Part shown: positions 10,255 through 57,542 of the stretch, in pieces
How positions within the stretch are numbered: the first letter of the stretch is position 1
Layout of the letters: each line of letters starts with the position of its first letter
Assembly (NCBI GenBank): GCA_015680905.1
Contig: CM027379.1
Location: forward strand, 30,336,501-30,400,500
Source: Coptis chinensis
Lineage: Eukaryota > Streptophyta > Magnoliopsida > Ranunculales > Ranunculaceae
Direction: 5' to 3'
DNA length: 64,000 nt
Made by a program: the position numbers and the translations under genes
The notes under the pieces: model-generated
What the model saw: the letters and a program-made list of their open reading frames with translations, nothing else
Database searches by the model: none
Told to the model about the DNA's origin: nothing

Positions 10255-13200
10255 CACTACTAAAAAAAAGACTTATAATGACGGCTAAAAGCCATCATGA
10301 AACAGGTTTAATGATGTGTTTTCATTAAAAAAACAACTGTCATTATAGAGCCCGTCATAAAAGTTTACCAAAACCGTCATTAAATTTATGACGGTTTTAC
10401 GAAAACCGTTATGTACTTCAAATATTTTATGTCAAAAATAGAGATAAAACCGTCATAATAGGCAATAAAATATTGAGTGTTACATAGTAACCGTCTTTAA
10501 TTTTAGTACAACTGTCATAATTTTCAGCAAAAACCATCACGAAACCTGTTCAATTTGTGATGGTTTTGTCAAAGCCGTCATAAAAATATACATTTTCTAG
10601 AAAAAAAATATTTATTAAAAATTATTTTATACCTAGAAAATTGAATAAATCATTTAGCACGTATACAATCAAACTCCAGTACAAACAACTTATCATGATC
10701 ACAAATGTAACAAACTAGCCAGTTCGTGATCTATTCACAAAACAGAATCCATTACATTCCACCATCTCAAAAAATTACATACATGTAACCAAAAATATCC
10801 ACAAAATATGTCTAAAAAAGAACGGTTTGCATGGTTTGAGTTTCATTCATCGAACCTTGTCCAAACTTATCCTGCAAAAAATCAAAGTCCAAAAAGAAAA
10901 TAAGAAGAGTATCATTCGAAGAAAACGACGAAAGGAAAAAAAAAATGTTAATGACAAGACGAAAGTGAGAAAAAAAAACGTGTTACATTGCATCTGGTCC
11001 TTGCAAGAGTTCCAATGAACATCTAATAAGTTGCAGTAAATATCATATAATTTTTGCCACAATTTCAAATGAGTATAAGTAAGCAAATATTGCATTGCTG
11101 AAAGGAAAAAGTACATGGGCCTCCAATAGTCCACTATAATAACAATAGCACTATTAGAAGATTAGTCAATTCATCTATGGATTAGACAAATTCAGATTAG
11201 TACCATAAGCAAGTGCAATCTCATTCCATTCTATATGTAAATTATTAATACAGCTAAGGTCTATTGAGTTCAAGTCATAAAATGCCTCACTCCATTGTAG
11301 CTAATTCCCACTAACTATTAGTGATAACTATACTAGAATGCAACATTCAATAGGTCAGCTAACATGCACGAACGGAACAAATACCAAGTCAAACCCTTAC
11401 TAAATGATATGCACAATTTATAAAAGCAAAAAACAGGTACAACCAATAAAATATTTTGGCACTAATGATATTAAGAAGGAAAAAGGAATAGAGGAATTTT
11501 TCTCTACTCGCAATCTCACATAGATTGAAGGCTACTTACGATTCTGATCACCAACTATAGTCTCCTCACAAGCTCAGACTAAGCAACTTCTGAAAGTATG
11601 ATCACTTTGTACCTGTAACATTAAATATAACCCAAGCTCATTGGCAACCATGTTGTACCCTGAGTGACTTAGGACCTAATTGCTAGGAACAAGATATCAT
11701 TAATTAAGACTTGTTTTAAAACATAAGTGAGGTGGAAGGGCCTATGTGTAGGCTGGGTTGCAATCTACATGTAAGAACTAGCCTTCTTGATTGGGAACAA
11801 AACTTTGAACTAAGCAAAAGAACATATAATAACTTGAAAACTCTAGAAGGTCAATGTAAGATTTGATAGAAAATAGTTGATAGAACGATCTCGAAATAGA
11901 TAACAAATTAATGCAACAAGTCTTAGAACAAAAATTGAATCCAACAAACGGAATGATCAATGCAAGGCGACTTACCAACTCAGAGTTTCAGACAAAAAAT
12001 GCAAAGCTTGTATTCCACACGAACCAATCCTCAACAACTCGATCATCTCTTACAAACACCCGTTAATACAACAAAGAAGAAAAAGTCAGAATCACCCAAA
12101 AAGAAAATCAATATATCCTTAACAGTGAGTATCTACCATAGTATTTAACTCTTGAACCATTAAACAGCTCAACAAATTACCAAGGCAAGAAGCTTGCAAA
12201 GCATTCAAATCCTCTAAAATTAGTTACATTAGAATAACTAATAGGATATGTATGCATCAAGTCACATATATATATAAATATATATGCATTCAAAAATAGC
12301 TATGAACATAGCAACTTAGCTCCAGACCAGGAATGCAAACCATGCATCAATTCGAATCAACCATTCAAAACACGATTTAAAGTTTCTGCCCTGTGCAAAC
12401 CACTACACGCAACTACATACGAACCTAATTATATACAATACCAAGGAATTGAAGCACTTACTGGTTAACAAGTTTGTGTTGAAGCCTACTTTCTTGAATT
12501 GAGCGAACAAAAGCAACCAGCTATATGAAATTCCTTTTCCACCAATATACAGTAGTACATTGAAAACTAAATAGAATGCAAACAGATAGTGCATACTTTA
12601 AAATATTGAAGTAACTAACACCAGCACAAACATTGTTTTCTTATGTCGAAACCCAAATAATTTGAAAAACCCCAATTTAAAATCCAAACAATTAGAAAAC
12701 CCCCAATTTGAAAACCGTAACAATGTTTAAAACCTGAAAGAATAACCAAACCAGAAAACGTGATTGCTAGATAATGATAGAGAGAAACCAAATACCGTGA
12801 TTCTTTCGCTCTCTCTCGAAATCAACAGAAAAATATTTTTCTTTTTGGGGAAACCATGTTAAAAAGATGGTGGTTACCTGAGGGATGGGAGATTGAGAAA
12901 ACGAAAGGGGGTCAAATAGACTAGCTAGAGAGACATTGAGCAGGAAGAAGAAGCATAGCCGTTGTCCAGGAATATTCTTGAGCCAAAACCCTTGCGAAAA
13001 AAAAAAAAATGGTCATGACCTTTTGTTTTAGTTGACCAGGTTTAGTTGACCCAGGCTTATTTTTGTATTCGAGGACTCTTGACGCTTTAACTTTCAAAAT
13101 GCGACTCAATTCCAAAAATTTAAAACGAACACATGACGGTTTAGAATTATATCAGCTAACAATTTTGCCAAGCCCGTCATAAATTTTTTTGACACAACTC

Positions 13201-13261
13201 ATGATAACGTCAAAAATTAAACAAAATCGTCAATAAATTTTTAAGTACTTTGGTTTATTAT

Positions 13262-13378
13262 TATTTTTTTATTGGTAAGCCTATTAAATAAGATCAGTAA
13301 CTCTTTGATGCTAGCGGAGTTCGAACCCTCTGGTATCATCACCCAAAGGTTTTACCGACTTTGCTAGTCAGCACCTGC
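13262..13378 (-). mobile_element. tRNA-derived SINE, copy 2
   Basis: This is the reverse complement of the 9676 copy: B box as GAGTTCGAACCC, A box as CCGACTTTGCTAG, and T-rich tail at the left. It is flanked by a 16-bp perfect target duplication TACTTTGGTTTATTAT (13246-13261 and 13379-13394), the signature of LINE-mediated insertion. It lies inside CACTA element 1. Confidence 0.85.
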
Positions 13379-13423
13379 TACTTTGGTTTATTATATTGCA
13401 AACTTGACTGTTTTAGGAAATTT

Positions 13424-13680
13424 GTCATAAAATTATCATATTTTCTTGACACTTATGTCATACACGACATAATGTTACAACAACCGTCATAAAATCATAA
13501 TATTTTCTTGATGCTTGTGTCATATACGACATCATATTGCAACAGCTGTCATAAAATTATTATATTTTCTTGACGTTTGTGTCATACACGACATAATGTT
13601 GCAACAACCATCATAAATTTATTATATTTTCTTGATGCTTGTGTCATACATGACATAATATTTCAATAGCCGTCATAAAC
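13424..13680. repeat. Subterminal tandem repeats of CACTA 1 (about 70 bp x 4)
   Basis: Four imperfect units each contain CGTCATAAA, ATATTTTCTTGA and the near-palindrome TGTCATACACGACATAA. They lie next to the right terminal repeat of CACTA 1 and are likely transposase-binding repeats. Binding is inferred from the family. Confidence 0.75.
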
Positions 13681-13775
13681 ATATTACTAAAACACCTATC
13701 TTAACGGTTTTTAACAAAGCCGTCAAGATAGATAAAAACCAACCGTCATAATATGTCTTTTTTTTAGTAGTGTGA

Positions 13776-14560
13776 TATAAAATAGCCAGTATTAATGTAG
13801 TTGTACTTCAAGCAAAGCCAGCACCACAAAAGGTTGAAGCCAACTCTGCACCTATATAAATCTTTATCTATTTGGGGGTTTTATACCAATTAGCAATCTA
13901 CGAAAGGACATAACCAATTTTCTTGGACAGAACCACGAATTACTCAGGCTACTCACACAAAAAAAACCATAGTTGTCTTTTGCTTGGTAAATTTATACTC
14001 ACTCAACTAGTAAAAGCTCCCCCGACTGGTGCAGCCCTTCACAGAGATAAAAGTCATAGGCAGATAAATATATAAATTTTGCAAGGTGCCACACTAAGCA
14101 ATATAATAGAGCAATTAAATAAGTAAACACAAATTGCCCACAAAGAAATACATACCAGAAATTATCAGAGCTGAAAAAAGAAGAGTCCTCATCCATGTTC
14201 ATCACCGTCAAAAAATCAAGTGACTAAATGTCATATACGTGGCCAAGTAACCTCATCCATGCACTACTTAAGCACCTTGAGTTCTGAAAGATAGTAAAAT
14301 TGTTTGACAATAAGAATTAGTCACTTTTTTAAATCATTTATAAAACTACCCATAGAGGTGGGGAAAAGGTTTGTTGAGCATAAATAAGCCCGGTTTAGTA
14401 AGTTATTAAAATGTGTAGCAAAGTGAACTCCAAGTAATATTTTGTTTTCAATGCAAGGAGAAATTCATTAACTTGGGTTATATTATACTTGAGAATGCTA
14501 AAGTGATCTGGGTTTTGCCTCCAATGTTGACATCAGTAGAATTTGAAGAAATATGACAAC
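13776..14560. other. Spacer left of the NOP14-like exons
   Basis: No clear gene. A minus-strand exon-like piece near 14150-14215 (reads MNMDEDSSFFSSDNFW, then a GTATG donor) could belong to the NOP14-like copy or to another gene; I cannot identify it. Confidence 0.25.
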
Positions 14561-14569
14561 TTATATATG

Positions 14570-15010
14570 GGCAGAACTTCTGCAACTGTCTGGCGACCTG
14601 CAGAACCATGGAGCACAAGAAATATCCAATGGCAATGTCACGACCACATTTTATTGGACAATGCATCAGATACTCGCACATCAATAAGACCACTGGTGTC
14701 ATGACAACATGACGGAAATCGGAGCATGGAAATATCGTGGACCATATCATCAAAAGAAATAATGTTTTCATAGAAGGCCAAGAACTCGTCTCTGCAAGAT
14801 GTCTGTGCATTAGTAAAAAAAACTAGTACAAGGAAGTTGTTTTACCTAAGCTGGAAAGTACCTCACAAAATTGAGTTCTGGTGTGATGTATGTTTTGTCA
14901 AGCACAAATTGCTGCAAAGTACAGAGTGTCCATGCTCATCTCTAGCAATGGTTTAACCAACAAGTTTAAGAGTTTGAAGTTCAATGGCTTCTTATCCGTA
15001 ATGACAGCAA
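14570..15010 (-). pseudogene. NOP14: NOP14-like nucleolar protein, two decayed exons
   Basis: Two minus-strand exons read as the C-terminal domain of NOP14, a nucleolar protein of the small-subunit processome needed for 18S rRNA maturation. The first (about 15010-14862) reads KKPLNFKLLNLLVKPLLEM, then AAICA, a stop, and HTRTQFCE, followed by a GTAC donor. The second begins after a TTGCAG acceptor at 14793 and contains SDFRHVVMTP, MCEYLMHCPIKCGRDIA and FLCSMVLQ, then KFCP. The family normally has AAICAR at the position of the stop and continues KFCPEAI; here the frame is lost after KFCP. Introns are retained, so this is a genomic fragment, not a processed copy. It lies between two CACTA elements and may be a relict gene or a capture by a larger transposon. 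The family call is fairly firm; function is not expected. Confidence 0.7.
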
Positions 15011-16405: not shown

Positions 16406-16789
16406 GCCCACTACCAAAAAAAAAAGTTTACCTGACAAACGCTATAAAGAATAGCCGACAGTTTCTGTTTGTGGGAAGTTACCTACGTATTTCGTCTGTC
16501 GGGTAAAGTTTGAAGGTGTATCGGGTAAACTCTCTGAGTATTATATGGGTTTTAGATGTGGCCGATGGTGTTACGAGAGTTACTAACCCTCGGATAGGGC
16601 GACGGTTTTCACTACTTGGTAAGTTCCGACGGATTTAATAAATATCCCAATTGTTGTTTAATATTTTGCAATATTTGCTAGCCGCGGGGTATCTTCCAAC
16701 CAATTTCAACTGTCGTCATACCTTTCCCAAATTATCAGGCGCCAAACAAATTTCGTTCCCATTAAATTTATTTGGAAAAATAAAATAAG

Positions 16790-16990
16790 AAAAAGAAAAA
16801 GAAAACCTAAAATCTAATTTTCCTCTCTCCCTCACAGTTGCTACCGCTTCAACTCTCCTTCCCACTCCAAAAAGGTAACGTGCACTCTCTGTTTCTCTCT
16901 CTCTCATTCTCACACTCTCTCTCAAATAAAATTTTAATTTCATTTTTTTCGGTGATTTTTTAGGTTGTTTCATTAAGTTTAAATCTTTAG
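16790..16990 (+). other. Leader-like pyrimidine-rich segment in CACTA 2
   Basis: A CT-rich stretch (CTCTCTCCCTCACAG, then CTCTCTTTCTC-like runs) includes a donor-like AAAAAG/GTAACG near 16872. It resembles a plant 5' leader with a leader intron. It lies upstream of the NAT10-like exons and could be their captured promoter and leader. This is an inference from composition and position only. Confidence 0.3.
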
Positions 16991-17221
16991 AGTTGAAAAT
17001 GATGGAACTTAGCACGCGTTAGGGTAAGGGTGAATATAGTTTTTGTTGGTGATTATAGTTTAACAAAATTATTTTCTAATAAATATGAAGTTTTTTGTAG
17101 TTGATTTCAACTACCACTGTTCAGACCAGAGACGGTGTTGATATTCTTGAGCACTTTCATATCCCTATTGGTACTTATAAAATCACTTCTTAGTTTTATA
17201 TAAGAGATTGATATTAGTGGA

Positions 17222-18296
17222 GAGAAGTTAAAAGGCGTATGAAACACGGATTGTTAACAGCTGATATGATTGACCCATTTTTACTATTTGCTAAAAGTGG
17301 GGGATTAAGTATTGCATGTATAAGGATTCAGAAAGAGTTATTGGTAACACATTTGGCATGTGTATTCTAGGTACAACAACTCTAGCAATCTATATATATA
17401 TAGTTCACTACTTCGTATTAACTTATGCCTCTTAATATGATTGTAGGATTTTGAGGCACTGACACCAAATCTCCTTGCAAGAACAATTGAGACAGTGGAA
17501 GGTGGTGGATTAATTATATTGCTACTTCATTCCCTCACTTCACTCACCAGTCTTTATACAATGGCCATGGTCTGTTTTCTGCAACAACTTGTCTTTCTAC
17601 TGTTGCTTGTTAACAATAACTGGGCCCGACTGCCTATAAAGAGGAAAGAATTAGTACAAGTGTAAATAAAAATGTGGATTACTTTTCCTACTTAGAGGTG
17701 TTGATGTTTTCAAATATTACAACTTCACAGATATTAGTAATGAAAGCAAAGCCAAGACAAATAGGCAACTTATTTCTTGATCTAATCTTATTTCTCTTAT
17801 GAAGAAACTCATACTACATTCTGAATAAAAACTTATTTTTAAAACTTTATATAGTTGACCTTCGACTGCTATTTCTATAATGTCTTTTATGTTGCTACTA
17901 GGATTCATGATATTTCTTATGAATTAATCACTTGTTTTGAGAATGATCCTTTTGTCATTTGTCCTCGTTATCAAAGTACTGCCACAGAGTACTTTGTTCT
18001 TGAATAAGAAATGTTGTTGCTTTTGAAAGGCACAAACTTGGTGATGTGTAACAATATTATAAGTGCAAACTCATTTCTTTCAGGATGTTCATGAGAGGTT
18101 TCGAACAGAATCCCACTCTGAGGCAACTGGACGCTTTAATGAACGCTTCTTATTATCTGTTGCATCCTGCAAGGCATGTCTTATAATGGACGATGAGCTA
18201 AATGTAATCTTTCATGGAAAAGAAACAGGAGACCAGCTAAATGGTTTATCGATTTTGTCACATAATAGGATGAACGAAACAGGAATAGTTAGGAAG
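17222..18296 (+). pseudogene. Captured fragment of RNA cytidine acetyltransferase (NAT10/Kre33-like)
   Basis: Three exon blocks with GT-AG borders (about 17222-17370, 17447-17569 and 18084-18296) read as the N-terminal region of the NAT10/Kre33/TmcA family, the nucleolar ATP-dependent RNA cytidine acetyltransferase. Diagnostic strings are KRRMKHGLLTADMIDPF, then (after a frameshift) YKDSERVIGNTFGMCIL, DFEALTPNLLARTIETVEGG, and DVHERFRTESHSEATGRFNE with CKACLIMDDELN. Two lesions are visible: a frameshift near 17300-17315, and an apparent 2-base loss at the 17370 splice border. The helicase and acetyltransferase domains are absent. After MDDELNVI the reading no longer resembles the family, which suggests a junction with other sequence. 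It lies inside CACTA 2. The family call is strong; it is non-functional as an enzyme. Confidence 0.85.
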
Positions 18297-18907
18297 GTAT
18301 GGTTTCACACTTTCACCACTATTATCTTTTCAGATATGCTTTGTTTGGTACAAATAATGTATTTGCTGTACTTGTAAGAAACGTTTTGATTTGATAATTC
18401 CATTCATGCGTCTCTGCTAGCTTGTGGCAGCATACAATATCTTGTATTCTATTTCATGCACTAATTTATGCATCTCAGAAGTATAGGACCTAATTAACAC
18501 TAGTTACATAGTGAGTTTAATCTACTTAATTGCATTATTCTACTCAGAACGTAGGATTAATAACATCAAATTATCAATGCCTCAATTTTTTCATGTTCTG
18601 CACCATTTCTTTAGGGGTATATGTATGTGTCTCAACTTTTTATTCTTTATGGTGATGAATGTGTACAGAGTCCAATTTTCTAGGCTAGTGAAAGTTTGGT
18701 AGTCGGCTTCTGACTATGAGGAAAAATTTATAGTTGTCGGACCTTACGAAATCTATACAAGGAAAATGCCCTGTCATCTCCAACAAATCAGTTCATTTTG
18801 GAAGTTTGTAGTTTGTGATTTTGTCGCATCATTTGTTGTGTGCAACTTATTGCCCATCACAGTGACTAAATCTCTCTTAATTAATCATCATGCTTCTTTT
18901 GGTTAAG

Positions 18908-19242
18908 CTGGGATTCCGAATGTGAGGTGGTTTGGCGTTGAAAGAGATTACAGTGTTCTTGTGATGGATTTGCTTGGACCTAGTCTTGAAGATTTATTTA
19001 ACTTCTGCAGTGGAAAACTTTCTTTAAAGACTGTTCTTAGGCTGGCAGATCAAATGGTAGGTGCAATATCTCGTTTGGTCTCTGTTATTCTATATTAATG
19101 GTATACAAGATTTCTCATGTACATATGTTCCCAATTCTTTCATCAGATTAACCGAGTTGAGTTTGTTCATACTAAATATTTTCTACATCGAGATATCAAG
19201 CCAGACAATTTCCTCATGGGCTTAGGGAGGCGAACGAATCAG
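18908..19242 (+). pseudogene. Captured fragment of casein kinase I (plant CK1/CKL)
   Basis: Two exons with intact GT-AG borders (18908-19056 and 19147-19242) match the plant casein kinase I catalytic core with few changes. The first reads [20 protein letters not shown] and [19 protein letters not shown]. The second reads [21 protein letters not shown] and [11 protein letters not shown]. The second includes the catalytic loop HRDIKPDN with the proton-acceptor Asp. The ATP-binding lobe before it and the DFG segment after it are absent. Both frames are open and in phase across the intron. The piece sits between the NAT10-like and CLC-like pieces in CACTA 2, same strand. It cannot make a whole kinase, but a chimeric transcript is conceivable. 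Confidence 0.92.
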
Positions 19243-19805
19243 GTATGTTTTACCTCTTCATTGATAATTTTTCTTTTTTCTTCCAAGTGATTCCTTGTAT
19301 GTGATGTAATGTGCTTTTTCTCTTTAAAACCTGCTCTACTATATCTGTTGAGATTTTAGTAGAAAAGGAGTTGAGAGCTGATTCTATGTCGTGGTGTGGG
19401 TTTCGATAGTAAATTAGCACTCGACATATTTCGTTTACGTCATCTAGTGTGTTGGATATGTAACAAAATTTAGATAAGGTGCATGGAGAAGAAATGGATG
19501 GGAGTACTGGTTGAAGAATGCGAGCTAGTTTAGTACTATGTAAAGACTCAACAAAAGCTCATTACATGGAAGGAGAAGAAGCATAAGAAAATGACCCAGA
19601 AAGCAACTCTCTGCAGTAGCCATTTCTTAAAAAAAATAGAACAATATCCTCCAACCCACTAGCCATGGTTGGGTCTAAGGTCTCTCATATGGAGAGCTTG
19701 GACTATGAGCATGGTCATCTTATTCCATAAATCAATACTAATATTCCTTCTTGTAATACTATCATGCTCAAATGATTCTTTTTTCTAATGTCCTTCTTGA
19801 TGCAG

Positions 19806-20864
19806 GATCAATGAGAATGATCTCTTCAAACATGATTGGAGGAGTCGATCAAGAAATGGCTTTCCCTATTTTCTTAAAATGGACATTGGCTTTCCTTATT
19901 GGCCTGCTAACTAGGGTTATTGCCACCCTTATCAACCTTTCAATAGAGAACATTGCTGGATGCAAGCTTCTCGCAGTGGCTCATTTTGTTGAGGAGAAAA
20001 GGTGTGCATGCTTTCTGCAGGATCAGTATTATACTATTATCAAACCTTTTTAGTAGGGTGTCAACAACTTCATTTTCTTGGTCTTTTTTGTCCGTACAAA
20101 AATTTGAAATGTACATTCTGATGGTTGCTGCAGGTATCTCATGGGTTTCATATATTTCACCGTGTCCAATCTGGTTCTCTTATTAGTAGGGGTTGTTCTT
20201 TGTGTGATGTTTATGCCTACCGCTCTGAGGATCAAGCATACCGAGATTAAAGCTTATCTCAACGGAGTTGACACACCCAACATGTTGGTGCTCCTTAATT
20301 AGTTGTGAAGGTGAGTTAACCACTTCCTAGCTTGATTCGGTTTAAACAAGAATTCACATTTGGTCAACAATTTCGGATAGTGAAATGACTAAATCAAAAT
20401 AATTTTAGTGGGCAAAAGTTCACCACTATGAACAATCTCAAACCGATAAACAAGTACATTTTTTATATATGGCTTAAGAAGAAATACACAACAAAGGATA
20501 TTGACATTAAATTCAAAAATGGATAATTAGATATAGATGATCTCAAAAAACCTTTTCTTACTCATCTTTGCAGATAATTGGAAGTATTTGTGCGGTCTCT
20601 GCTGGTCTAGACCTGGGAAAAGAAGGGCCACTGGTGCACATCGGTTCCTGCATTGCTTCCTTGCTAGGCCAAGGTGGACCAAACAAACACCGCTTGAAAT
20701 GGTGTTGGTTACGTTACTTCAATAACGACAGGGACTATAGGGATCTTATTACATGTGGAGCAGCTTCAGGTGTATGTGCTGCTTTCCGCTCACCTGTAGG
20801 GGATGTTCTATTTGCCCTAGAAAAGGTAGCAACATGGTGGAGGAGGCCTGCTATGTGATATAGG
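19806..20864 (+). pseudogene. Captured fragment of CLC chloride/nitrate transporter
   Basis: Three exon blocks (19806-20001, 20134-20310 and 20574-20864) match the N-terminal half of plant CLC anion channels/antiporters of endomembranes. The first has FLKWTLAFLIGLLTR and NLSIENIAGCKLLAVAHF (first membrane helix region). The second has YLMGFIYFTVSNLVLLLVG and EIKAYLNGVDTPNM. The third has SAGLDLGKEGPLVHIGSCIA, which includes the ion-pathway signature GKEGPxxH, then CGAASGVCAAFRSPVGDVLF and LEKVATWW. Lesions: the segment before EIKAYLNG is altered, and a frameshift with a TAA follows DTPNM. The first block also has a frame change near its beginning and an altered segment after WRSRSR. The later helices and the CBS domains are missing. 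Introns are kept, so capture was from genomic DNA. It is inside CACTA 2. Confidence 0.9.
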
Positions 20865-21284
20865 GTGAGTGTTGTCTTAGATTTAATTTCATACTTTATA
20901 AATGTTAGTTTTAGTAAAACCATTTCCTTGTAAGTTATTGGGAATAGCTTTAGCAATACATTAAGGGTTGTTTGTTCAGTCTTAAATTTAAATTTTGCCC
21001 CGATATTGTTCCTATCTTAGCTTGAAGTCCTGTTTCTCCTTTGATCAGCCATGTGAGGCAAGATTATTATAGTCATGCAAGTCACAAACTATTCAATGTT
21101 TTTTAGCAGAGTACTTTAATTTTAGCATTTTGTTGTTCTAATTGTTTATTTATGAATACATTGGCGCTTGTAGCATTTGAGTGGAACCTGCAAGATGTAA
21201 TTGGAGGGGAAAGAATGTAGTGTTGGGATTAGGATACCTGAAAGAATTATTACAATCAATATTTTTTTTAAACAAAAAACTAAT

Positions 21285-21660
21285 ACCCGACAGATACCAA
21301 CTGTCTAGTAGTAAACTACCCCGACGGCCTATAACACTGGTCCTATCCAACGGCTAGTGACAGCAGGTATATCCGACGGGCTATAATAGTTGTCCTATCC
21401 GACGGCTAGTGACAGCAGGCATATCCGACGGTTAACAACAGCCGTCCATATCCGATGGTTCTTGGCAGCAGTAATACCCGACGGTCCAAAGCAGTGGGAA
21501 TATCCGTCGGCAAAGATCATCAACCCCGACGGCCTGTTCTGATTGTTCATAACTGTCGGAAACCTATGCCGACTGAGCGTTTTCCGACGGTCATGCGGCA
21601 GTTTTGGTCTGTCGGGTAATACCTTTGGCGACAGTCACCGTCAGTCGGGTAAAGTGACTT
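21285..21660. repeat. Right subterminal repeats of CACTA 2
   Basis: Repeated CCGACGG and TATCCGACGG motifs occur in both orientations. A direct repeat of about 66 bp is seen at about 21330-21400 (GGTCCTATCCAACGGCTAGT versus TGTCCTATCCGACGGCTAGT, each followed by GACAGCAGG). These are the expected transposase-binding sites next to the terminal repeat. Confidence 0.75.
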
Positions 21661-21674
21661 CTTTTGTAGTGGCC

Positions 21675-22100
21675 ATACCGAAAAGATAGAATGCTGCACT
21701 TGAAATCCCAAAAAACCAAAGCAACAGAACTTCCCAATATCTGAAATCCCAAAGTTTAGACCCCTCTTCTTTGAATCTGTGTTTGTGAAACACAACCACA
21801 AACATAAACAAGCGGTTTCATTACCTGAACAATAGGTTTGAATGGTTGTTGAGGTGGAGAATCGGTGTTGCTGGTGGAGAGATTTAAGAAGAAAGTGATA
21901 CTGCCGAGTGCAGATGAAGAGGCTAAGTCTAGGGTTTTCTATTTTGGAAACAAACTACCCCTCTTTTTACTTTGTCCTTATTTCTTAAGTTTTTTTTTTT
22001 TTTTTTTTTTTTTGACGAAAATATGGGCACTAAATAACGAAATGATAGGCATGGAAAGTATAAATTAATAGTGCCTATTATTTACTGCAGATGCAAGGGT
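21675..22100 (-). other. Possible 5' exon of an unidentified minus-strand gene
   Basis: On the minus strand, a CT-rich leader-like stretch (about 21945-21835, starting near AAAACCCTAG) ends in CAG/GTAATG, a good donor. No protein could be recognised. It may be the leader exon of the gene whose interior received CACTA 2. A T tract lies at 21991-22013. Confidence 0.3.
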
Positions 22101-22593
22101 GGGCAATAATTTTCTTGCAAAACTAATTTGAAGAACTAGCTACGCATACAAGGTAACAAGTGGTTGCCAATAACAGAGACTATCAGCAACGCTTGAAAGC
22201 GTTGTCCAAGCTTTTACCAAATTTTGGTATTCACTGTGAGCATAGAATCAGCAACAGTTATTGAACAGTTGCCAAACCTAGCTATTGAACCACATATTTT
22301 TCCCTTTCTTAATAGTGTCTGCAACATTTTCAAGCGTTGCTGAAAGTAAATAATATTTGCTACTCTTAAAAGCGTAGCTAATACTAGCTAAATAATACAA
22401 AAAATTAATTTAATTATTAGAAAATGCGAGATACATATAGCAACGCTTAAAACCATTGCCGATAATATCATCTATTATCTGCTTCAAAAAAGCAATAGCA
22501 ACGTTTGAAAGCGTAGCAAAAGATATCTATTGGCTACGCATTGTAAGCATAGCAAATAATTTTGTAGTAAAAAATACCATCTCTTGTAGTGAG
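22100..22593. mobile_element. CACTA-like right end with CAACGCTT repeats (unpaired)
   Basis: Repeated AGCAACGCTTGAAAGCGTTG-type palindromes and GCGTAGC / GCAACG motifs run up to a terminus ...CATCTCTTGTAGTG at 22593, the inverse of CACTACAAGAGATG. The layout is that of a CACTA subterminal region. I found no matching CACTACAAGAG left end in the window, so the element is truncated or nested beyond recognition. Confidence 0.5.
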
Positions 22594-30128: not shown

Positions 30129-31400
30129 TTACTGATAGTACTTGTGAAGGTGTTGGGCATTCCATGGTTTGACAAGAACGTCCCCTTCAACAGTACGTAG
30201 GTAGTAAAAACCAGTTCGGCAAACCTTGTCAATGATGTATGGTCCTTCCCAGTTAGGCCCAAGCTTGCCGTTATGCTCTGGGATCTCACGCATAACCAAA
30301 TCGCCAGATTTGAAAGCTCGAATTTGGATTCTCTTGTCGTATGATCTTTTTAGAATCTGCTGGTTGGCAGCCAAGCGCAATGCAGCGCCTTCCCTCTTTT
30401 CATCTAGTAGATCCATTTCTTTGTATAATAATTACTCATTATCTAGGGTGTGCACAACGTCTGACTTCTGAGTGGGAGCTACCAGTTCAGGATGTGTGAC
30501 AGCTTCAGTTCCGTAGGTCAGTGAAAATGGGGACTTACCAGTCGATCGTCTAGGCGTAGTTCGGTATGCACATAGGACCTTAGCTAGTTTCTCGACCCAT
30601 AAACCCTTTGCTTCATCTAATTTATGCTTCATGTTATCCAAAATAACCCTAGTGGAGGCTTCAACCTGGCCATTGCCTTGTGGATACCTTGGAGTTGAGA
30701 ACATATGGGTAATGTGAAACTCTTCACAGAGTTCAGCGACTAATCCGCCAGTGAACTGTTGCCCATTATCTAATATGATAACTTTGGGTATGCCAAACCT
30801 ACAGACAATATTGTTCCAAATGAACTTTCTGACGTCTTGTTCACGAATGAAGACAATGGGAACTACTTCCATCCACTTGGTGAAGTAATCCATCGCAACC
30901 AGTAAGAATCTGACATTGCAGGGAGTGGGTGGCAAGGGTCCCACAATATTAGTTCCCCATTCTGCAAATTGCCATGGGATGGATAACGGGTGCAGCTCTA
31001 TTGCTGGAGCATGGATAAGTGGAGCATGTCGTTGACACTTTTCACATTTACGGGAAAAAACTTGTGCATCCTTTTGCATATAAGGCCAAAAGTACCCTTG
31101 CCTTAAAATCTTGAGGGCTAGTGTTCTGCCCCCAGCATGGTTGCCACAAATTCCTTCGTGAACCTCTCACATGACATGTTCAACAAGATCTGGGGTGAGA
31201 CATCAGAGATGAGGTCCCAAAAAGGACTTATTGTAGAGATCATCTTCAATGAAGGTAAATCTTGGTACCTTTGTAAGCAGACGCGTTGCTGTGTTCTTAT
31301 CCTCTGGGAGTGTTCCGTCTTTGAGGTAAGACTTCTATGGATCCATCCAATTTGGTGTGGTGGTTGGAATAACACAAACTGTCATAACATCGAGTGCTTG
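30129..31400 (-). pseudogene. Gypsy element 1 integrase
   Basis: The zinc-binding segment ends in CEKCQRHAPLIH. The core follows with EWGTNIVGPLPP, IILDNGQQFTGG and PQGNGQVEA. The C-terminal domain (30129-30416) reads GKLGPNWEGPYII, and the polyprotein ends NAQHLHKYYQ, the usual Tat end. The first acidic residue of the D,D-35-E triad is Asn here (GTNIVG instead of GxDIVG); the second Asp and the Glu are present. Frames shift near 31100 and 30430. Integrase would insert the cDNA; this copy cannot. Confidence 0.9.
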
Positions 31401-34200: not shown

Positions 34201-35330
34201 TTATACAGCGTTTGCCTGTTCATGTGCTATGAACTGCTTCAAATACCCCCTTTCAATCAGATCATATAGTTGATTTTTCAGGGTCCTGCAGGCTCTGGTA
34301 CTGTGACTCTTACTCTTATGGCACTTGCAGTAGGTCCTCTGGTCTCTGGTACCCAAGGAGCCCGGCTTGAGCGGACCTGGCCATTTGAGGTAACTCTGGT
34401 TCTTGATCAAGTTCAGAACCTCATCTGGCATTTTGTTCAAAGGGGCGAAGTTTCTGTCCATTGAGGGTAGAGCTTATTCAGCTCATTCCATACGTGGCTT
34501 CTTTTGTGGTTTTCCATCTGCACTATTGGCTAGATTTTGGTACTACCCTCTGGGCATTCGTCCCTTTGATGGGGATTCAGCCCTTTGGCGACCACGATGA
34601 CGGTATCTTTTTTGCTTTTGAGGGAAAGAGTTCCCGTTCCCCTCTCGAAAGGCCATAGGAGTTGTCCGATTTTTCTTCTTTGCTTCCTGATGTCGGTTCA
34701 GGACATCTTCCTCCCACCCCGCATGAGTTTCAACCCCTGTCTAGGAGTTCCTCCAAATTACAGGGTGGTTTCCTGGAAAGAGATCCAAATAAGGCGTTGT
34801 TTTCATCCAACCCTTGTTTGAAAGTTATTATAGCAATCTGTTCGTCACAAGACTCTATCTGGATGGAAATTTCCATGAACTGTTGCATGTAGGACCTCAA
34901 TGCCTCTTCGTCCTTTTTCTTGATATTAAACAGTGCATCGATCCATTTTGGTTGGTGATAGTTGCGCGAGTACCTATCTATGAAGGTCCTGAACATTTCT
35001 TCTGATGACCTGATATGCCGCTCAGGTAACCTATGGTACCACTGGAGCGTAGATTCAGATAGGGAAGCTTTGAACTCTTGACACATGATGTGGTCATACC
35101 TTTCATATTGTCCCATAGTGGCACGATATATGAACACATGATCCACTGGATCTGACTTGCTACTGAAGATACTGAACTTCGGTTGTCTGTGACTGCGGGG
35201 ATATGGCTTTCTCATTCCTCGTGATGCGAAAGGAGATCTGCCTGCCCCCATTATGGTGGATTGAACAAGGGAGTCTTGCATTTTTTTTTCTCCCTTTGCT
35301 GTCATCCGATGCATCTGACGGATTAGGTCG
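34201..35330 (-). pseudogene. Gypsy element 1 gag
   Basis: The capsid-like part (34730-35314) contains QPKFSIFSSKSDPVDHVFIY, CQEFKASLSESTLQWYHRLP and a DALFNIKKKDEEALRSYMQQF segment. A C-terminal knuckle-like segment (34201-34461) has CKCHKSKSHSTRACRTLK followed by LIERGYLKQFI, typical of Tat gag. The two lie in different frames with stops between. Gag would form the particle shell and bind RNA. Confidence 0.85.
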
Positions 35331-35970
35331 TTCTTCTCAGTTTCCCATGCACTTTCTTTGGTATAAAGTTCCTTGTTCTAGGTTCCTTTTCAGTGTCAGA
35401 CCGGGGTCGACATCACAATCCTAGTCAGTTGACTTTGGGTCTGATGTTGTATCCGAATCTTCATCCAAGTTACTATATTTCGACTCTGATGGTTTGTGTC
35501 AAACTGGTTCCCCACGCCTTGGGTTCCTAGCATGACCGCCTTCTGGAAAGTTGTCATTATCGAGATCGATGAGTGGCTTCTTCCCTGTGTCAAATTGATA
35601 CAAATGCCTCAGTAGCTATAACTCTCACTCAAGGTTGCTTCTTTGCTGTTCCAGAGCCTGTACCACCTGACTCGCCTGAACAGACTCTGGGTTGGTGGAA
35701 CAACATTCTCACCATTTTGGCGTTCCTCTTGAGCATTATTCCTAGGGCCTGCACCGGGAGCAACTGGTCCGTCAGTGCTAGTCACTAGTCCTTGGAAGGG
35801 ATTATTCACATCATGGTGACCGACATTCTCCCCCCTTCAGGCATCTTGTGCTCTTCTTCTCTGACAGCGACGCTGTGTGTGGTAGCGCCTATTTTCTTTG
35901 CTCCTGCCATCACAATGGTAAGAGTTTTAAAACTAAATCAGTCATTTGAACGAATGTTTACCTACTTTCG

Positions 35971-49638: not shown

Positions 49639-50211
49639 TCATATGACAAAGAATAGAAGAAAAATCAAGGAAAAAATGGAATAAGAAAAGAGTGAGCGGA
49701 ATGTATAACAAACGTTTTTCAGACCGAAAGGTATTACCTGGTAACAGTAAATTTCTTGGTCTGTAATGAATGCAGTAAACTCTTGGTCCTCAATGAATAA
49801 CGGAATCTGATGATAACCAAAATAAGCATCCAAAAAAGACAAACACTGAAAACCATATGTGGCATCGACCATTTCAGATATACGAGGCAACGGATACGGA
49901 TGAATCGGACATGCTTTATTGAGATTCATAAAATCGATACAAACACGTAATTTGCCGTTCTTTTTAGGCACTACGACTACATTTGACAGCCATGTTGGAT
50001 AAGTCACAGGCCTTATAAAATTAACAGACAAGAGACGATCGATTTCTTCTTTCACTTTCATCTTTCTATCGGGGGTCATCCTTCGGGGATTTTGTCTAAC
50101 CGGCTTTGCATTGGGATTAATGTCAAGTTTATGACAAGCCACAGAAGGATCTATACCAGGCATTTGCTCTATTCGCCAAGCAAAAACATGACTATTCTTC
50201 CTCAATAACAA
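49639..50211 (-). pseudogene. Gypsy element 2 reverse transcriptase, N-terminal half only
   Basis: The minus-strand open frame reads QMPGIDPSVACHKLDI, RVCIDFMNLNKACP, SFLDAYFGYHQIP (first catalytic Asp) and YQVIPFGLKN (motif B), then loses similarity and ends in hydrophobic sequence derived from the 3' region. The frame up to that point is open. The catalytic YxDD segment is deleted, so no polymerase activity is possible. Confidence 0.9.
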
Positions 50212-50274
50212 AATAAGCTCTTGTCTCTCCGCTTCTAAAAGTTCGGCCGAAATAAAAGTTGTCTCTTCAGGGAG

Positions 50275-51050
50275 TTAGCCAATTTGAACTTCTAAAAGTG
50301 GATCGACGGTCGGGGGTCCTTCAACATTTCTATTGGCAGAGTAAACTGAAGGTCCCGAATGCTGTAATTGATATTTGACGGCGTTGGAACTCAGAATAGT
50401 TCGTCCAACAACTTCAGACTTCTTATAATCATCGTGGCAAATTAGAGATGCAGGTTGATCACTACACACTTTATAGACTTTACTATTGAATAGGAACTTG
50501 ATGGTTTGATGATATGTTAAGACGACAACTTCCATATAATGAATCCAATCGCGACCAAAGATGACATTGTAAGGGGATTTACAATCCATCAATAGGAAAT
50601 AAATATTGACTTCTTTCTGCATAAGAGTGACTGGGAGAGAAATATTTCCAACGCAATGAGTAGCGGTACCATCAAAACCAACGATAGGCGCATTTTCAGG
50701 AGTGATCAAGTTATCAATAAGGGTTAGTTAGACTTACCCCCCCCTCCCCCATTACTAGTTGCAATTAGTGTTACACTACGTTTTCAAAAATATTAGTGAT
50801 ACCCCCCCAATTGCAAGATCCAACGGTTATGAGATGAATTTTTTTTTTTTTCAGATAAAGAAATCTGACTGTTAGATCACTCAAATGGGGGGGTATCACT
50901 AATATTTTTGAAAATGGGGGGGTAACACTAATTGCAACTAGTAATGGGGGGGTAAGTCTAACTAACCCTATCAATAAAAGGAATACTGTGATAACACCCA
51001 GAAAACATGACGCTAGCTGAACTACCAGTGTCAATCATTATACGTTGTAC
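50275..51050 (-). pseudogene. Gypsy element 2 protease, split by a MITE
   Basis: The first part (about 51090-50978) contains the retropepsin active site MIDTGSSASVMF. The second part (50709-50275) reads VGFDGTATHCVGNISLPVTL and YNVIFGRDWIHYMEVVV. The MITE at 50721-50968 with its 9-bp duplication lies exactly between them. The active-site Asp is intact. Confidence 0.88.
50721..50968. mobile_element. Mutator-like MITE in the protease (9-bp TSD TATCAATAA)
   Basis: Inverted ends GGGTTAGTTAGACTTACCC are followed by C tracts and long arms (ATTACTAGTTGCAATTAGTG and complement). The 9-bp duplication TATCAATAA is perfect (50712-50720 and 50969-50977). Nine bases fits the Mutator superfamily. It shares the GGGTTA start and C-tract arms with the MITE at 38326. 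Confidence 0.88.
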
Positions 51051-51087
51051 GCGCATACAGCTGATATACGCAGTTATCACGACAGCA

Positions 51088-52437
51088 TCATAATAAAGAA
51101 CATGCACTCCCATTGTCAATGAAACACAATGGTTCGTCTTCAATAGTCTCCGGGCGAAAACCTTCCACGAAATTGATCCCGTTAACTTCGTAAAAATTAG
51201 AAAGATATTTGACTTTAGAATGGTGAGCATTTTTCCACTGAATATTAGAGAATGAATCAATGACGGCATGTCCAACCTTAATGACATTGTGATCGGTTAC
51301 AGTTAAAGCTTGAGTTGTCACTTTTTTATGCACATATTGATCAAGTTTCCCATTCTGCACAAGTTTTTCAATTCTTCCCCGCAAAGACCGACAATTCTCT
51401 GCCTCATAACCATAATCATTATGAAATTTGCACCATAACGATTTATCGTGAGTTGTTTTAGTGTCATTGAGCAGGGGAAACGGCGGAGTGAGCAGACTTT
51501 TATCCCTGATTTTGTCGTAAACCACCGCATATTTAGTATTAAGCGGAGTTAATTCAAAAACAGTAAAAGGCTTTTCAGTCCTGCTCGTTGAGCCTTTTTT
51601 CTTATACGGAAGCTTCTGACTGGGTTGCTATTGATCAAAAATCGAATTCTTCTGTTTGTTTCGCTGATCGTTGAAATCATTTCCTTTCTTATCGTTGTCA
51701 CAAGAAGTACGAGCAGTCGTGTCGTCCTCAACATTGATAAATTGTTGAACTCGCTGGTATAACGTACGTCGGGAAGATGGAATGTCCCGAACAAGAGAGT
51801 TGTATAACCCGTCTTTATCAAATAAGATAGCTTTTTTAAAAGCATAGACCACCATTAGATCGAACTGCTCGGAAATCTCAACTGCAGCTTGGCAAAAATA
51901 AGTGACAAAACTACGAAAAGTTTCATCACGTTGTTGCTTGATGTTGAAAATAACTCGGACACCATTTGGACATTTTAGATTATGATGAAAACGTTTCAAA
52001 AACTTTTCAGTTAAGTCCTTGAACCGACGAATAGATCGCGAGGGTAATTCGCTAAACCATACCAACGCTTCCCCTTTCAATGTAGAAGGGAAACGTTTGC
52101 ATTTTAAAGCATCATCACCTCCCGATAAAACCAGTTTGTTCATAAAATTAATCACATGAAGCATAGGGCAGCCCTTAACATTATCATATTGATCAAACTC
52201 TGGTTGTTTGAAGTCCTTGTTATGAGTAGCCCGTTGGACGGCGAGAGAAAATTTGTCCAAAATACCATCTTCAACTGTCAGATTCTCTAGTGTCGATTCA
52301 AAAGGATCACTGTCTAGAAAAGCTTTTTTAATCATTTCTTTGACACGTTGAGGAGTTATCAGATCCATATCTGCTGGCTCATAATCATAGTCGCGATGAC
52401 GCCTATGGGAACGAACAGAACGAGAAGAAAATGACAA
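51088..52437 (-). pseudogene. Gypsy element 2 gag
   Basis: The long minus-strand frame (52437-51628) contains LHVINFMNKLVLSGGDDALK, then LKGEALVWFSELPSRSIRRF and KFLKRFHHN, the capsid core of plant gypsy gag, followed by VIFNIKQQRDETFRSFVTYF. A second frame (51525-51088) carries the knuckle-like WCKFHNDYGYEAENCRSLRG and NGKLDQYV. One stop and a frame change near 51630-51540 separate the two. It is comparatively well preserved. Confidence 0.88.
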
Positions 52438-52439
52438 AG

Positions 52440-53181
52440 ATTCATCGTGACTGTGTCGAGATGATTGTGGACAGTATGGTATGACTGCAGTATGATATCC
52501 TTCAAAAGGATAAGAATCGTGTCAGTGAGGTCTTTCTCGAAATTGATTGTTTCGATCATGAGTGCGACCATTATTCTATTTGTCGCCCAAATTCTTCGGG
52601 ACTGGCCGATAATTCGTAGGACCTAGGGGTGCAGTCGGACGGTTATTAGCATTACATTGCCTACTGAGAATGTGATCGGGTCTCGGCGGAGGTCAGGAAA
52701 TTCTGTTCCCATTACTTGGAACTCGTTGATGGCTGTTGCGAATATCGTAAATCTCATCCTCACCACTTAATCGATCCCACACACTGTCATGTCATTAGCG
52801 TGTGTTACGTTGTGGTGTGACAGAGACAACATCATCTGCGAGTGGAGTAGGTCATTTTAGATGACGCTTGTAGTAGTTGTTCTATTTTCAGACATTCTTG
52901 AACTTTTTAAGAAGTGCTTCGCGAAACAGTTGACTGACATTATCCATATCAGATGATGGAGAATTGTTAGAGCCAATAACCTCGCGCTGAATAATTTGGC
53001 GCATTGGTGGAATGACAGTATTAGGAGGTATTAGTCCGTTATCGCCAAGTGGACCTTGACCATCATGTTCGTGATGATTGTCAGTAATTACATCGGGACC
53101 TTAAGCTCTTCGAGTATACGTCATAACTTTTGCAGAACGTGATCGAGAGTGTGGAATAAGAACCACAGACGGCGTCAATTA
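52440..53181 (-). other. Leader and N-terminal region of gypsy element 2
   Basis: Between the gag start and the 5' LTR, short broken frames rich in R/S/D suggest a disordered gag N terminus. The primer-binding site, minus strand GACGCCGTCTGTGG, is at about 53163-53176. Confidence 0.5.
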
Positions 53182-54658: not shown

Positions 54659-54732
54659 GGATCTTTAGCTCAAATGGCTGAGCACTTTGGATATATCCAA
54701 AGGAGATGGTGGTTCGAATCCACCAAGATCCT
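54659..54732 (+). tRNA. tRNA-like gene with an 8-base anticodon loop (possible pseudogene)
   Basis: It folds as a cloverleaf: acceptor GGATCTT/AAGATCC (7 of 7 pairs), D arm GCTC/GAGC with GG in the loop, anticodon stem CTTTG/CAAAG, T arm GGTGG-TTCGAAT-CCACC (perfect). The anticodon loop GATATATC has 8 bases instead of 7, so the anticodon is uncertain; ATA follows the only T in position 33. A TTTT pol III stop lies at 54739-54742. It may be a tRNA with one extra loop base, an organelle-derived copy, or a tRNA-derived repeat. Confidence 0.55.
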
Positions 54733-54869
54733 CTAAAATTTTAATGTTAATCAAACATGGAATCAAGTGTGTAATGTGAGTAATTTTCAACTTAGACGAC
54801 ACTTCCAAAAGAAGTTTCTAAAATTCAGTTCCAAAAGAAGTTCATAGTACAAAAAAAGTTCATAGTTGT

Positions 54870-56865: not shown

Positions 56866-56889
56866 TAAACAAAAGAGACAAATTCATAC

Positions 56890-57326
56890 CGCCTCCATTA
56901 GTTGCCTGACTTCAAACTCTGAAAGCTTGGTACCCAGTTTTGGGAAACCTGCTTTTAGTTCTTCATATGTTATTGTCCCACTGTTATATGTATCCATGGA
57001 TTTGAACATTTCTTTCAAACCCATAATCTCTTCTTCTGAAAGATTTTCTGCAATAACCTTTAGATCAACTTTCTTGAGTTTATTCATTGCCCTGAACTGC
57101 TTCATTCTACTTAAGACAGCAATATCAATTGGCTTGTCAGATGCGTCCCCATCTTCCCTGATCCATGGGTGGTTTAGGACTTCAAGAGCCGAAAGTTGTT
57201 CTTTCGGATCAGCCCATATCATCTTCTTCACTAGATCTTTGCCACTACTGGAGATGGAAGGCCAAGGATCCGAGGAGAAATTGACATGACCTCGCAAAAC
57301 AGCGTCAAAGATACTCATCTCATTCT
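56890..57326 (-). pseudogene. CDPK (calcium-dependent protein kinase) fragment, internal exons fused
   Basis: The minus-strand frame is open for 437 bases. It reads the end of the kinase domain ([48 protein letters not shown]), the autoinhibitory junction ([20 protein letters not shown]) and the first EF hand ([20 protein letters not shown]), ending [15 protein letters not shown]. It starts right after TTAATGCAG and stops right before GTATGAAT, so both borders look like splice sites, yet the introns that plant CDPK genes normally have inside this interval are missing. In the first EF-hand loop, D-T-Y-N-S keeps the main ligands. ATP-binding and catalytic-loop parts and the other EF hands are absent. 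It lies between a gypsy 3' LTR and its antisense gene, on the element's sense strand. Confidence 0.9.
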
Positions 57327-57542
57327 CTGCATTAAAATTCAGCTAAACTCCTTTAATTCAACTTCTTCAAAACAATATCCTGTTGGCTGGGATCAGTAAC
57401 ATGCGACTTTAATTCTTTCTCAGTTCAGGAGCGGTAAATAGAAACCTATTGTTTGTGAAATACCCAGCACATGGAAACCAATGAATTTTATTGGTTGTGA
57501 AACACATGGAAACCTATTGGTTTACGTTACTTATTAGTCTTT

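What the first reader, a model, noticed from the sequence alone, without database searches (positions are those of the whole stretch)
16409..21671. A complete CACTA element carrying pieces of three unrelated host genes
Terminal repeats and a GCC target duplication delimit 5.3 kb that contains, in one orientation, NAT10-like (17222-18296), casein kinase I (18908-19242) and CLC channel (19806-20864) exons with their introns. Splice borders are mostly intact and the casein kinase frames are open. This is a multi-gene capture by one transposon. A read-through transcript could splice exons of three genes into a chimera or make RNA that interferes with the parents.
Basis: partly seen in the sequence, partly recalled or inferred. 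Interest (0 to 1): 0.88.

Follow-up and report, generated by a model that had tools for sequence, protein, structure and literature searches.

The report
Jumping gene carrying three broken genes
A cut-and-paste plant transposon of the CACTA type, apparently in a goldthread (Coptis) genome, carries decayed pieces of three unrelated plant genes, and related copies of this mosaic appear as ordinary genes in a public Coptis chinensis annotation; it is a good new example of a phenomenon already known from soybean, Arabidopsis and maize.

Summary
16409-21671 is a 5263-bp CACTA-type element: CACTAC... ends, GCC target duplication (end similarity plus duplication reached in 0 of 200 simulations), and a subterminal repeat found mainly at its ends. 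It carries NAT10, casein kinase I and CLC-a/b exons with introns, in one orientation. No transposase domain appeared in the 10 of 68 further ORFs tested. The useful new evidence: Coptis chinensis gene model IFM89_001294 is the same NAT10-CK1-CLC mosaic, 326 of 337 residues identical to the window's exons joined the same way. Two further models (IFM89_013127, IFM89_031011) share its odd CLC end, WWRRPAM-stop, seen in 3 of 237 listed proteins, all C. chinensis. So one captured, already broken mosaic seems to have been copied to several contigs and annotated as genes. Best reading: a non-autonomous Pack-CACTA family, like soybean Tgm-Express1. Transcription, chimeric splicing and small RNAs could not be tested; the host genome search did not complete. 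Ordinary in kind, well documented.

The parts
16406..16408 (.). left target-site duplication GCC
16409..16442 (+). left terminal inverted repeat, starting CACTAC
   Evidence: 18 of the first 24 positions match the right end
16409..16700 (.). left subterminal region with 4 CCGACGG/CTGTCGG-type motifs
16820..16960 (+). CT-rich leader-like sequence; possible promoter or 5' leader of the element (inference only)
   Evidence: seen in sequence; not tested for plant promoters
17221..17300 (+). probable further NAT10 sequence; attribution by recall, no Pfam match
17301..17370 (+). NAT10 exon piece; its frame does not carry over to the next exon; a cryptic donor after 17343 is used in the C. chinensis model, which reads this stretch in another frame
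17447..17569 (+). NAT10 exon
18084..18209 (+). NAT10 exon, recognisable part
18210..18296 (+). unassigned continuation of that exon; two AGCTAAATG copies 39 nt apart (18196 and 18235) overlap its start
18734..18803 (+). exon of the C. chinensis model, origin unassigned
18908..19056 (+). casein kinase I exon, open
19147..19242 (+). casein kinase I exon, open
19557..19709 (+).
19806..20001 (+). CLC exon with a frame change between 19854 and 19868
20134..20310 (+). CLC exon; alignment to relatives breaks off at 20284, read as a frame loss
20574..20858 (+). CLC exon ending in the odd WWRRPAM-stop
21272..21671 (.). right subterminal region with 15 motifs and the right terminal inverted repeat (ends TAGTG at 21671)
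21672..21674 (.). right target-site duplication GCC

Best explanation
A non-autonomous Pack-CACTA transposon. An ancestor with CACTA ends acquired DNA from NAT10, casein kinase I and a CLC-a/b channel gene, introns included. The mosaic, already carrying frame breaks, was then moved and multiplied by transposase supplied from elsewhere that binds the ends, giving related copies on several Coptis contigs, which now decay. Shown: ends, duplication, cargo, odd breaks shared with C. chinensis gene models on different contigs. Inferred: the host, trans-mobilisation, CACTA ends on the other copies, silencing.
For: Ends and GCC duplication beyond chance; end-concentrated subterminal motif; three gene families in one orientation with introns; no transposase domain in the 10 further ORFs tested of 68 listed for the element. 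The window's exons joined as in IFM89_001294 give an ORF of the same 337 residues with 11 differences. IFM89_013127 (CK1+CLC) and IFM89_031011 (CLC) lie on contigs of other lengths and share the end WWRRPAM; 3 of the 237 proteins listed show it (sequences), while 125 others read TWWRSALL or a close variant. IFM89_031011 also shares the odd frame MISSxMIGGVDQE. An apparently intact casein kinase I, IFM89_038209, exists in C. chinensis; the three mosaic copies differ from it at 4-6 of 81 residues, against 0-2 for 84 of 85 other casein kinases that carry the motif used to pick them.
Against: I saw no DNA around the C. chinensis models, so CACTA ends there are unproven, and as annotated the models hold all three pieces in only one case. 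No intact Coptis CLC or NAT10 parent was seen: each listing shows only the best 120 hits, and full-length NAT10 lay outside the lengths searched. CLC exon decay alone is not decisive: the window and two models differ from the relatives' consensus at 10-12 of 88 residues, but 6 of 116 intact relatives also differ at 10 or more.
Confidence: 0.9

Rival explanations
1. The mosaic is a new chimeric gene: a spliced transcript of seven exons encodes a 337-residue NAT10-CK1-CLC protein that the plant uses.
For: The exon set of IFM89_001294 is fully open in the window, with all six introns GT..AG. One C. chinensis genome paper (PMC8172641) combined MAKER, AUGUSTUS and assembled transcripts and reports using RNA-seq to confirm expression of its genes (passages; section 21), though I could not tie the IFM89 tags to that paper (0 occurrences in its main text, nor in PMC8166882).
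Against: The ORF depends on a cryptic donor at 17343, an unassigned exon and, in the window, skipping three CLC exons; each Pfam match covers only part of its domain. The CLC end break is shared between copies. CK1 positions are less conserved than in the other plant CK1 proteins compared. A gene predictor picks exons that stay open, so an open model is weak evidence.
Confidence: 0.04
2. The element makes RNA, from its own left-end promoter or by read-through, that is spliced variably and feeds small RNAs acting on the parent genes.
For: Intact splice sites; direct precedent for chimeric splicing in soybean Tgm-Express1 (PMC1947982, abstract and sections 3 and 6).
Against: No expression or small-RNA data here; no plant promoter test was available (one search uses a bacterial consensus and is uninformative).
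Confidence: 0.2
3. Chance ends around an unrelated cluster of pseudogenes, with no single transposon.
For: The terminal match is imperfect, 18 of 24, one more than the best of the simulations; the ends of the other copies were not seen.
Against: 0 of 200 simulations; motif concentrated at both ends; related mosaics on other contigs.
Confidence: 0.02

Closest known systems
Tgm-Express1 (soybean CACTA element in the wp allele; PMC1947982)
   Same: CACTA element of similar size (5.7 kb) carrying exons and introns of several unrelated host genes (five there).
   Different: Different plant and genes; Tgm-Express1 has proven chimeric transcripts from a host-gene promoter, none is shown here.
Pack-CACTA of Arabidopsis and maize (Pack-TYPE survey, PMC8903248; review PMC13317346)
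   Same: CACTA ends, 3-bp duplication, captured coding DNA; in maize, Pack-CACTA are reported to hold the most distinct captured loci.
   Different: Mobility reported in Arabidopsis lines (passage); not tested here. The original Arabidopsis paper was not held.
CACTA elements with captured fragments in Chenopodium (PMC8978399, passages only)
   Same: Host gene fragments inside CACTA-like elements.
   Different: Those in the passages seen keep a transposase-associated domain; none was found here in the ORFs tested.

Membership tests
CACTA (En/Spm) superfamily | terminal inverted repeats starting CACTA | tested here: met
CACTA (En/Spm) superfamily | 3-bp target-site duplication | tested here: met
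   GCC on both sides
CACTA (En/Spm) superfamily | subterminal repeated motifs at both ends | tested here: met
   4 left, 15 right, 1 between; 7 in the rest of the window; motif chosen after inspection
CACTA (En/Spm) superfamily | mobilised by a CACTA transposase | not testable with these tools
   needs the host genome or an experiment; the genome search did not complete (11 calls)
Pack-CACTA (non-autonomous, gene-carrying) | no transposase of its own | tested here: inconclusive
   none in 10 further ORFs of 68 listed (one weak PHD match, E 0.026, below its cut-off) nor in the cargo pieces; the other ORFs were not scanned
Pack-CACTA (non-autonomous, gene-carrying) | contains coding DNA of host genes | tested here: met
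Pack-CACTA (non-autonomous, gene-carrying) | parent genes present elsewhere in the genome | tested here: inconclusive
   CK1 seen as IFM89_038209; CLC and NAT10 parents of Coptis not seen in the listed hits; full-length NAT10 not within the lengths searched
Pack-CACTA (non-autonomous, gene-carrying) | several copies with the same cargo and ends | tested here: inconclusive
   cargo copies seen as proteins on other contigs; their ends not seen
Tgm-Express1-like chimeric splicing | chimeric transcripts joining captured exons | not testable with these tools
   no RNA data; only the gene model IFM89_001294

The most novel reading that the evidence does not exclude
The Coptis copies are transcribed and spliced into a stable NAT10-CK1-CLC chimeric RNA family that is kept, either as a protein or as a source of small RNAs tuning the nitrate/chloride channel, casein kinase and RNA acetyltransferase genes together.
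Probability: 0.06. Interest if true: 0.7.

Novelty: new member of a known kind. Interest (0 to 1): 0.32.

Why it matters
It adds a clear multi-gene Pack-CACTA from what appears to be an early-diverging eudicot, with related copies whose shared break places at least part of the decay before the amplification. That argues that the cargo spread as passenger DNA and not because it coded for anything. It also shows a practical problem: three public C. chinensis 'genes' appear to be transposon cargo, which can mislead gene-family counts for CLC channels and casein kinases.

Tried and rejected
Camellia lanceoleosa P0001 scored above all other hits and looked like a second chimera; its sequence is mainly a tandem repeat of casein kinase I, so it was dropped. 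A fourth captured gene (18210-18296 plus 18734-18803) was tested by Pfam (only YejG at E 0.015, below its cut-off), solved structures (0 hits) and a protein search (only IFM89_001294 among 2 candidates) and remains unassigned; the exon end could also be NAT10 with a 39-nt insertion, from recall of NAT10 only. I looked for the left partner of the CACTA-like right end at 22591 and found no convincing one in the window (best 16 of 24 positions, without CACTA). A minus-strand leader-like sequence near 21830-21960 suggested a host gene interrupted in an intron; I could not support it. The comparison of CLC decay was not decisive. The bacterial promoter scan is uninformative for a plant.
Full report
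What is there. The stretch 16409-21671 (5263 bp) starts CACTACCAAAA and ends TTTTGTAGTG, with GCC immediately outside each end. I listed all CACTA...TAGTG pairs 300-12000 bp apart with an identical 3-bp duplication: 13 in the window (10.0 on average in 200 first-order Markov simulations). The best two are 10255-13772 (22 of 24 end positions alike) and this one (18 of 24); the simulations never exceeded 17, which 2 of 200 reached. A CCGACGG/CTGTCGG-type motif set, picked after seeing the ends, lies 4 times in the first 300 bp, 15 times in the last 400 bp, once between, and 7 times in the other 58.7 kb. These are the usual features of a CACTA element (family knowledge, recalled).

Cargo. Conceptual exon translations match TmcA_N (NAT10, E 8.3e-34), Voltage_CLC (8.7e-23) and Pkinase (3.9e-8) in Pfam; 3 of the 5 pieces given matched above their cut-offs, and the piece of the two middle CLC exons and the piece 17221-17367 had no match. 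In solved structures the best matches are RNA cytidine acetyltransferase (7.8e-47), a casein kinase I-like protein (3.2e-45) and CLC-a (2.3e-51). Its donor reads GAG|CATGGT. Apart from it, 7 of 8 native donors are GT and 7 of 7 acceptors AG (after correcting two coordinates that I had set one base off). The casein kinase exons are open. The NAT10 frame of 17301-17370 leaves one extra base at its donor and so does not carry over into the exon at 17447. CLC changes frame within its second exon (19854 to 19868), and its alignment to relatives breaks off near the 3' ends of the third and fourth exons, which I read as frame losses. No transposase domain appeared in 10 further ORFs tested of 68 listed.

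Relatives. A search with the joined casein kinase and CLC parts listed C. chinensis IFM89_001294 second, with precomputed Pfam domains of all three genes (120 of 7254 hits listed). The first, from Camellia, is a tandem repeat of casein kinase I. Joining the window's exons as in IFM89_001294 (17266-17343, 17447-17569, 18084-18296, 18734-18803, 18908-19056, 19147-19242, 20574-20858) gives an open ORF of the same 337 residues with 11 differences; all six introns are GT..AG. A second search listed two more C. chinensis mosaic-like models, IFM89_013127 (CK1 plus CLC) and IFM89_031011 (CLC), on contigs of 114 and 98 Mb against 90 Mb for the first, and an apparently intact casein kinase I, IFM89_038209, on a 125-Mb contig (120 of 7478 hits listed).

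Shared lesions. The CLC piece ends in WWRRPAM-stop, where intact relatives such as those of Aquilegia and Ranunculus read WWRSALLWR. Of the 237 proteins listed by the two searches, 3 read TWWRRPAM, namely the three C. chinensis models, and 125 read TWWRSALL or a close variant. IFM89_031011 starts in the same shifted frame as the window (MISSxMIGGVDQE). IFM89_001294 reads the first NAT10 stretch in the same non-NAT10 frame as the open frame of the window (LSIACIRIQKELL), though a gene predictor may choose frames; it also holds the unassigned 54 residues (94% identical; the only match, which considered lengths of about 0.55-1.75 times 487). An odd break shared by copies points to a common captured ancestor that was already broken when it multiplied. 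From these matches I infer that the window comes from Coptis or a close relative.

Constraint. In the 81-residue casein kinase stretch, 85 other listed proteins differ from IFM89_038209 at 0 (5), 1 (53), 2 (26) or 4 (1) residues; the window differs at 6, IFM89_001294 at 5, IFM89_013127 at 4. The 85 are those with the motif GIP[NH]VRWFG; P0001, the two models and the window were set apart, and proteins without the motif were not counted. This fits loss of protein constraint. The CLC exon is less clear: 10-12 of 88 for the window and two models, but 6 of 116 intact relatives of that length also reach 10 or more; sequences of another length, including IFM89_031011, were left out. Both sets are top-scoring hits and so biased to similar sequences.

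How it works. Most likely the element is moved by CACTA transposase made elsewhere, acting on its ends and subterminal repeats; capture of neighbouring DNA by aberrant excision of closely spaced elements is the mechanism proposed for Pack-CACTA (PMC13317346, passages). The order of the captures cannot be read from the data. Whether it is transcribed is open. Soybean Tgm-Express1 (PMC1947982: abstract and sections 3 and 6 read) shows that such an element can donate cassette exons when it sits in an expressed gene. The C. chinensis models are annotations; I could not link the IFM89 tags to a specific genome paper (0 occurrences in the main texts of PMC8172641 and PMC8166882).

Novelty. Multi-gene CACTA elements are known: five gene fragments in Tgm-Express1, and in maize Pack-CACTA contain the most distinct loci (PMC8903248, section 10). 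In the held library no paper mentions the three C. chinensis model names (0 papers). The searches 'Coptis' with 'CACTA' (15 of 35 papers listed) and Coptis/gene capture/Ranunculales/transposon (8 of 11 listed) showed nothing on this element in the listings, and CACTA does not occur in the main texts of three C. chinensis genome papers. So the instance seems undescribed there, but the kind is known.

Noticed in passing
window 10255-13772: A second complete CACTA-type element: 31-nt arms 94% complementary, TGA duplication, subterminal GTCATAAA repeats partly in a 62-bp array; no Pfam domain above its cut-off in the 8 of its ORFs tested.
   Followed up: partly
window 22591 and upstream to about 22180: A third CACTA-like right end (TTGTAGTG) with GCAACGCTT-type repeats; no convincing left partner found in the window.
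   Followed up: partly
window 14481-14822, minus strand: Fragment of a Nop14-like gene (Pfam E 4.5e-28) between the two CACTA elements, apparently with frame breaks; possibly another captured or relic gene.
   Followed up: partly
window 21830-21960, minus strand: Leader-like sequence (AAACCCTAG..., then CAG|GTAATG) just outside the element on the opposite strand; it might be the 5' end of a host gene into whose intron the element jumped, antisense to the cargo. Not supported further.
   Followed up: no
window 18196-18243: Two AGCTAAATG copies 39 nt apart in the NAT10-derived exon, an in-frame insertion-like unit; its translation is shared with IFM89_001294.
   Followed up: partly
window 30435-31166, 34733-35377, 49642-52521: Retroelement pieces (integrase, gag, reverse transcriptase) on the minus strand.
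   Followed up: no
window 56887-57342, minus strand: Protein kinase (just under its cut-off) plus EF-hand piece, like a calcium-dependent protein kinase.
   Followed up: no
window 54659-54733: tRNA-like gene scoring above the Rfam cut-off, but ARAGORN could not name its anticodon.
   Followed up: no
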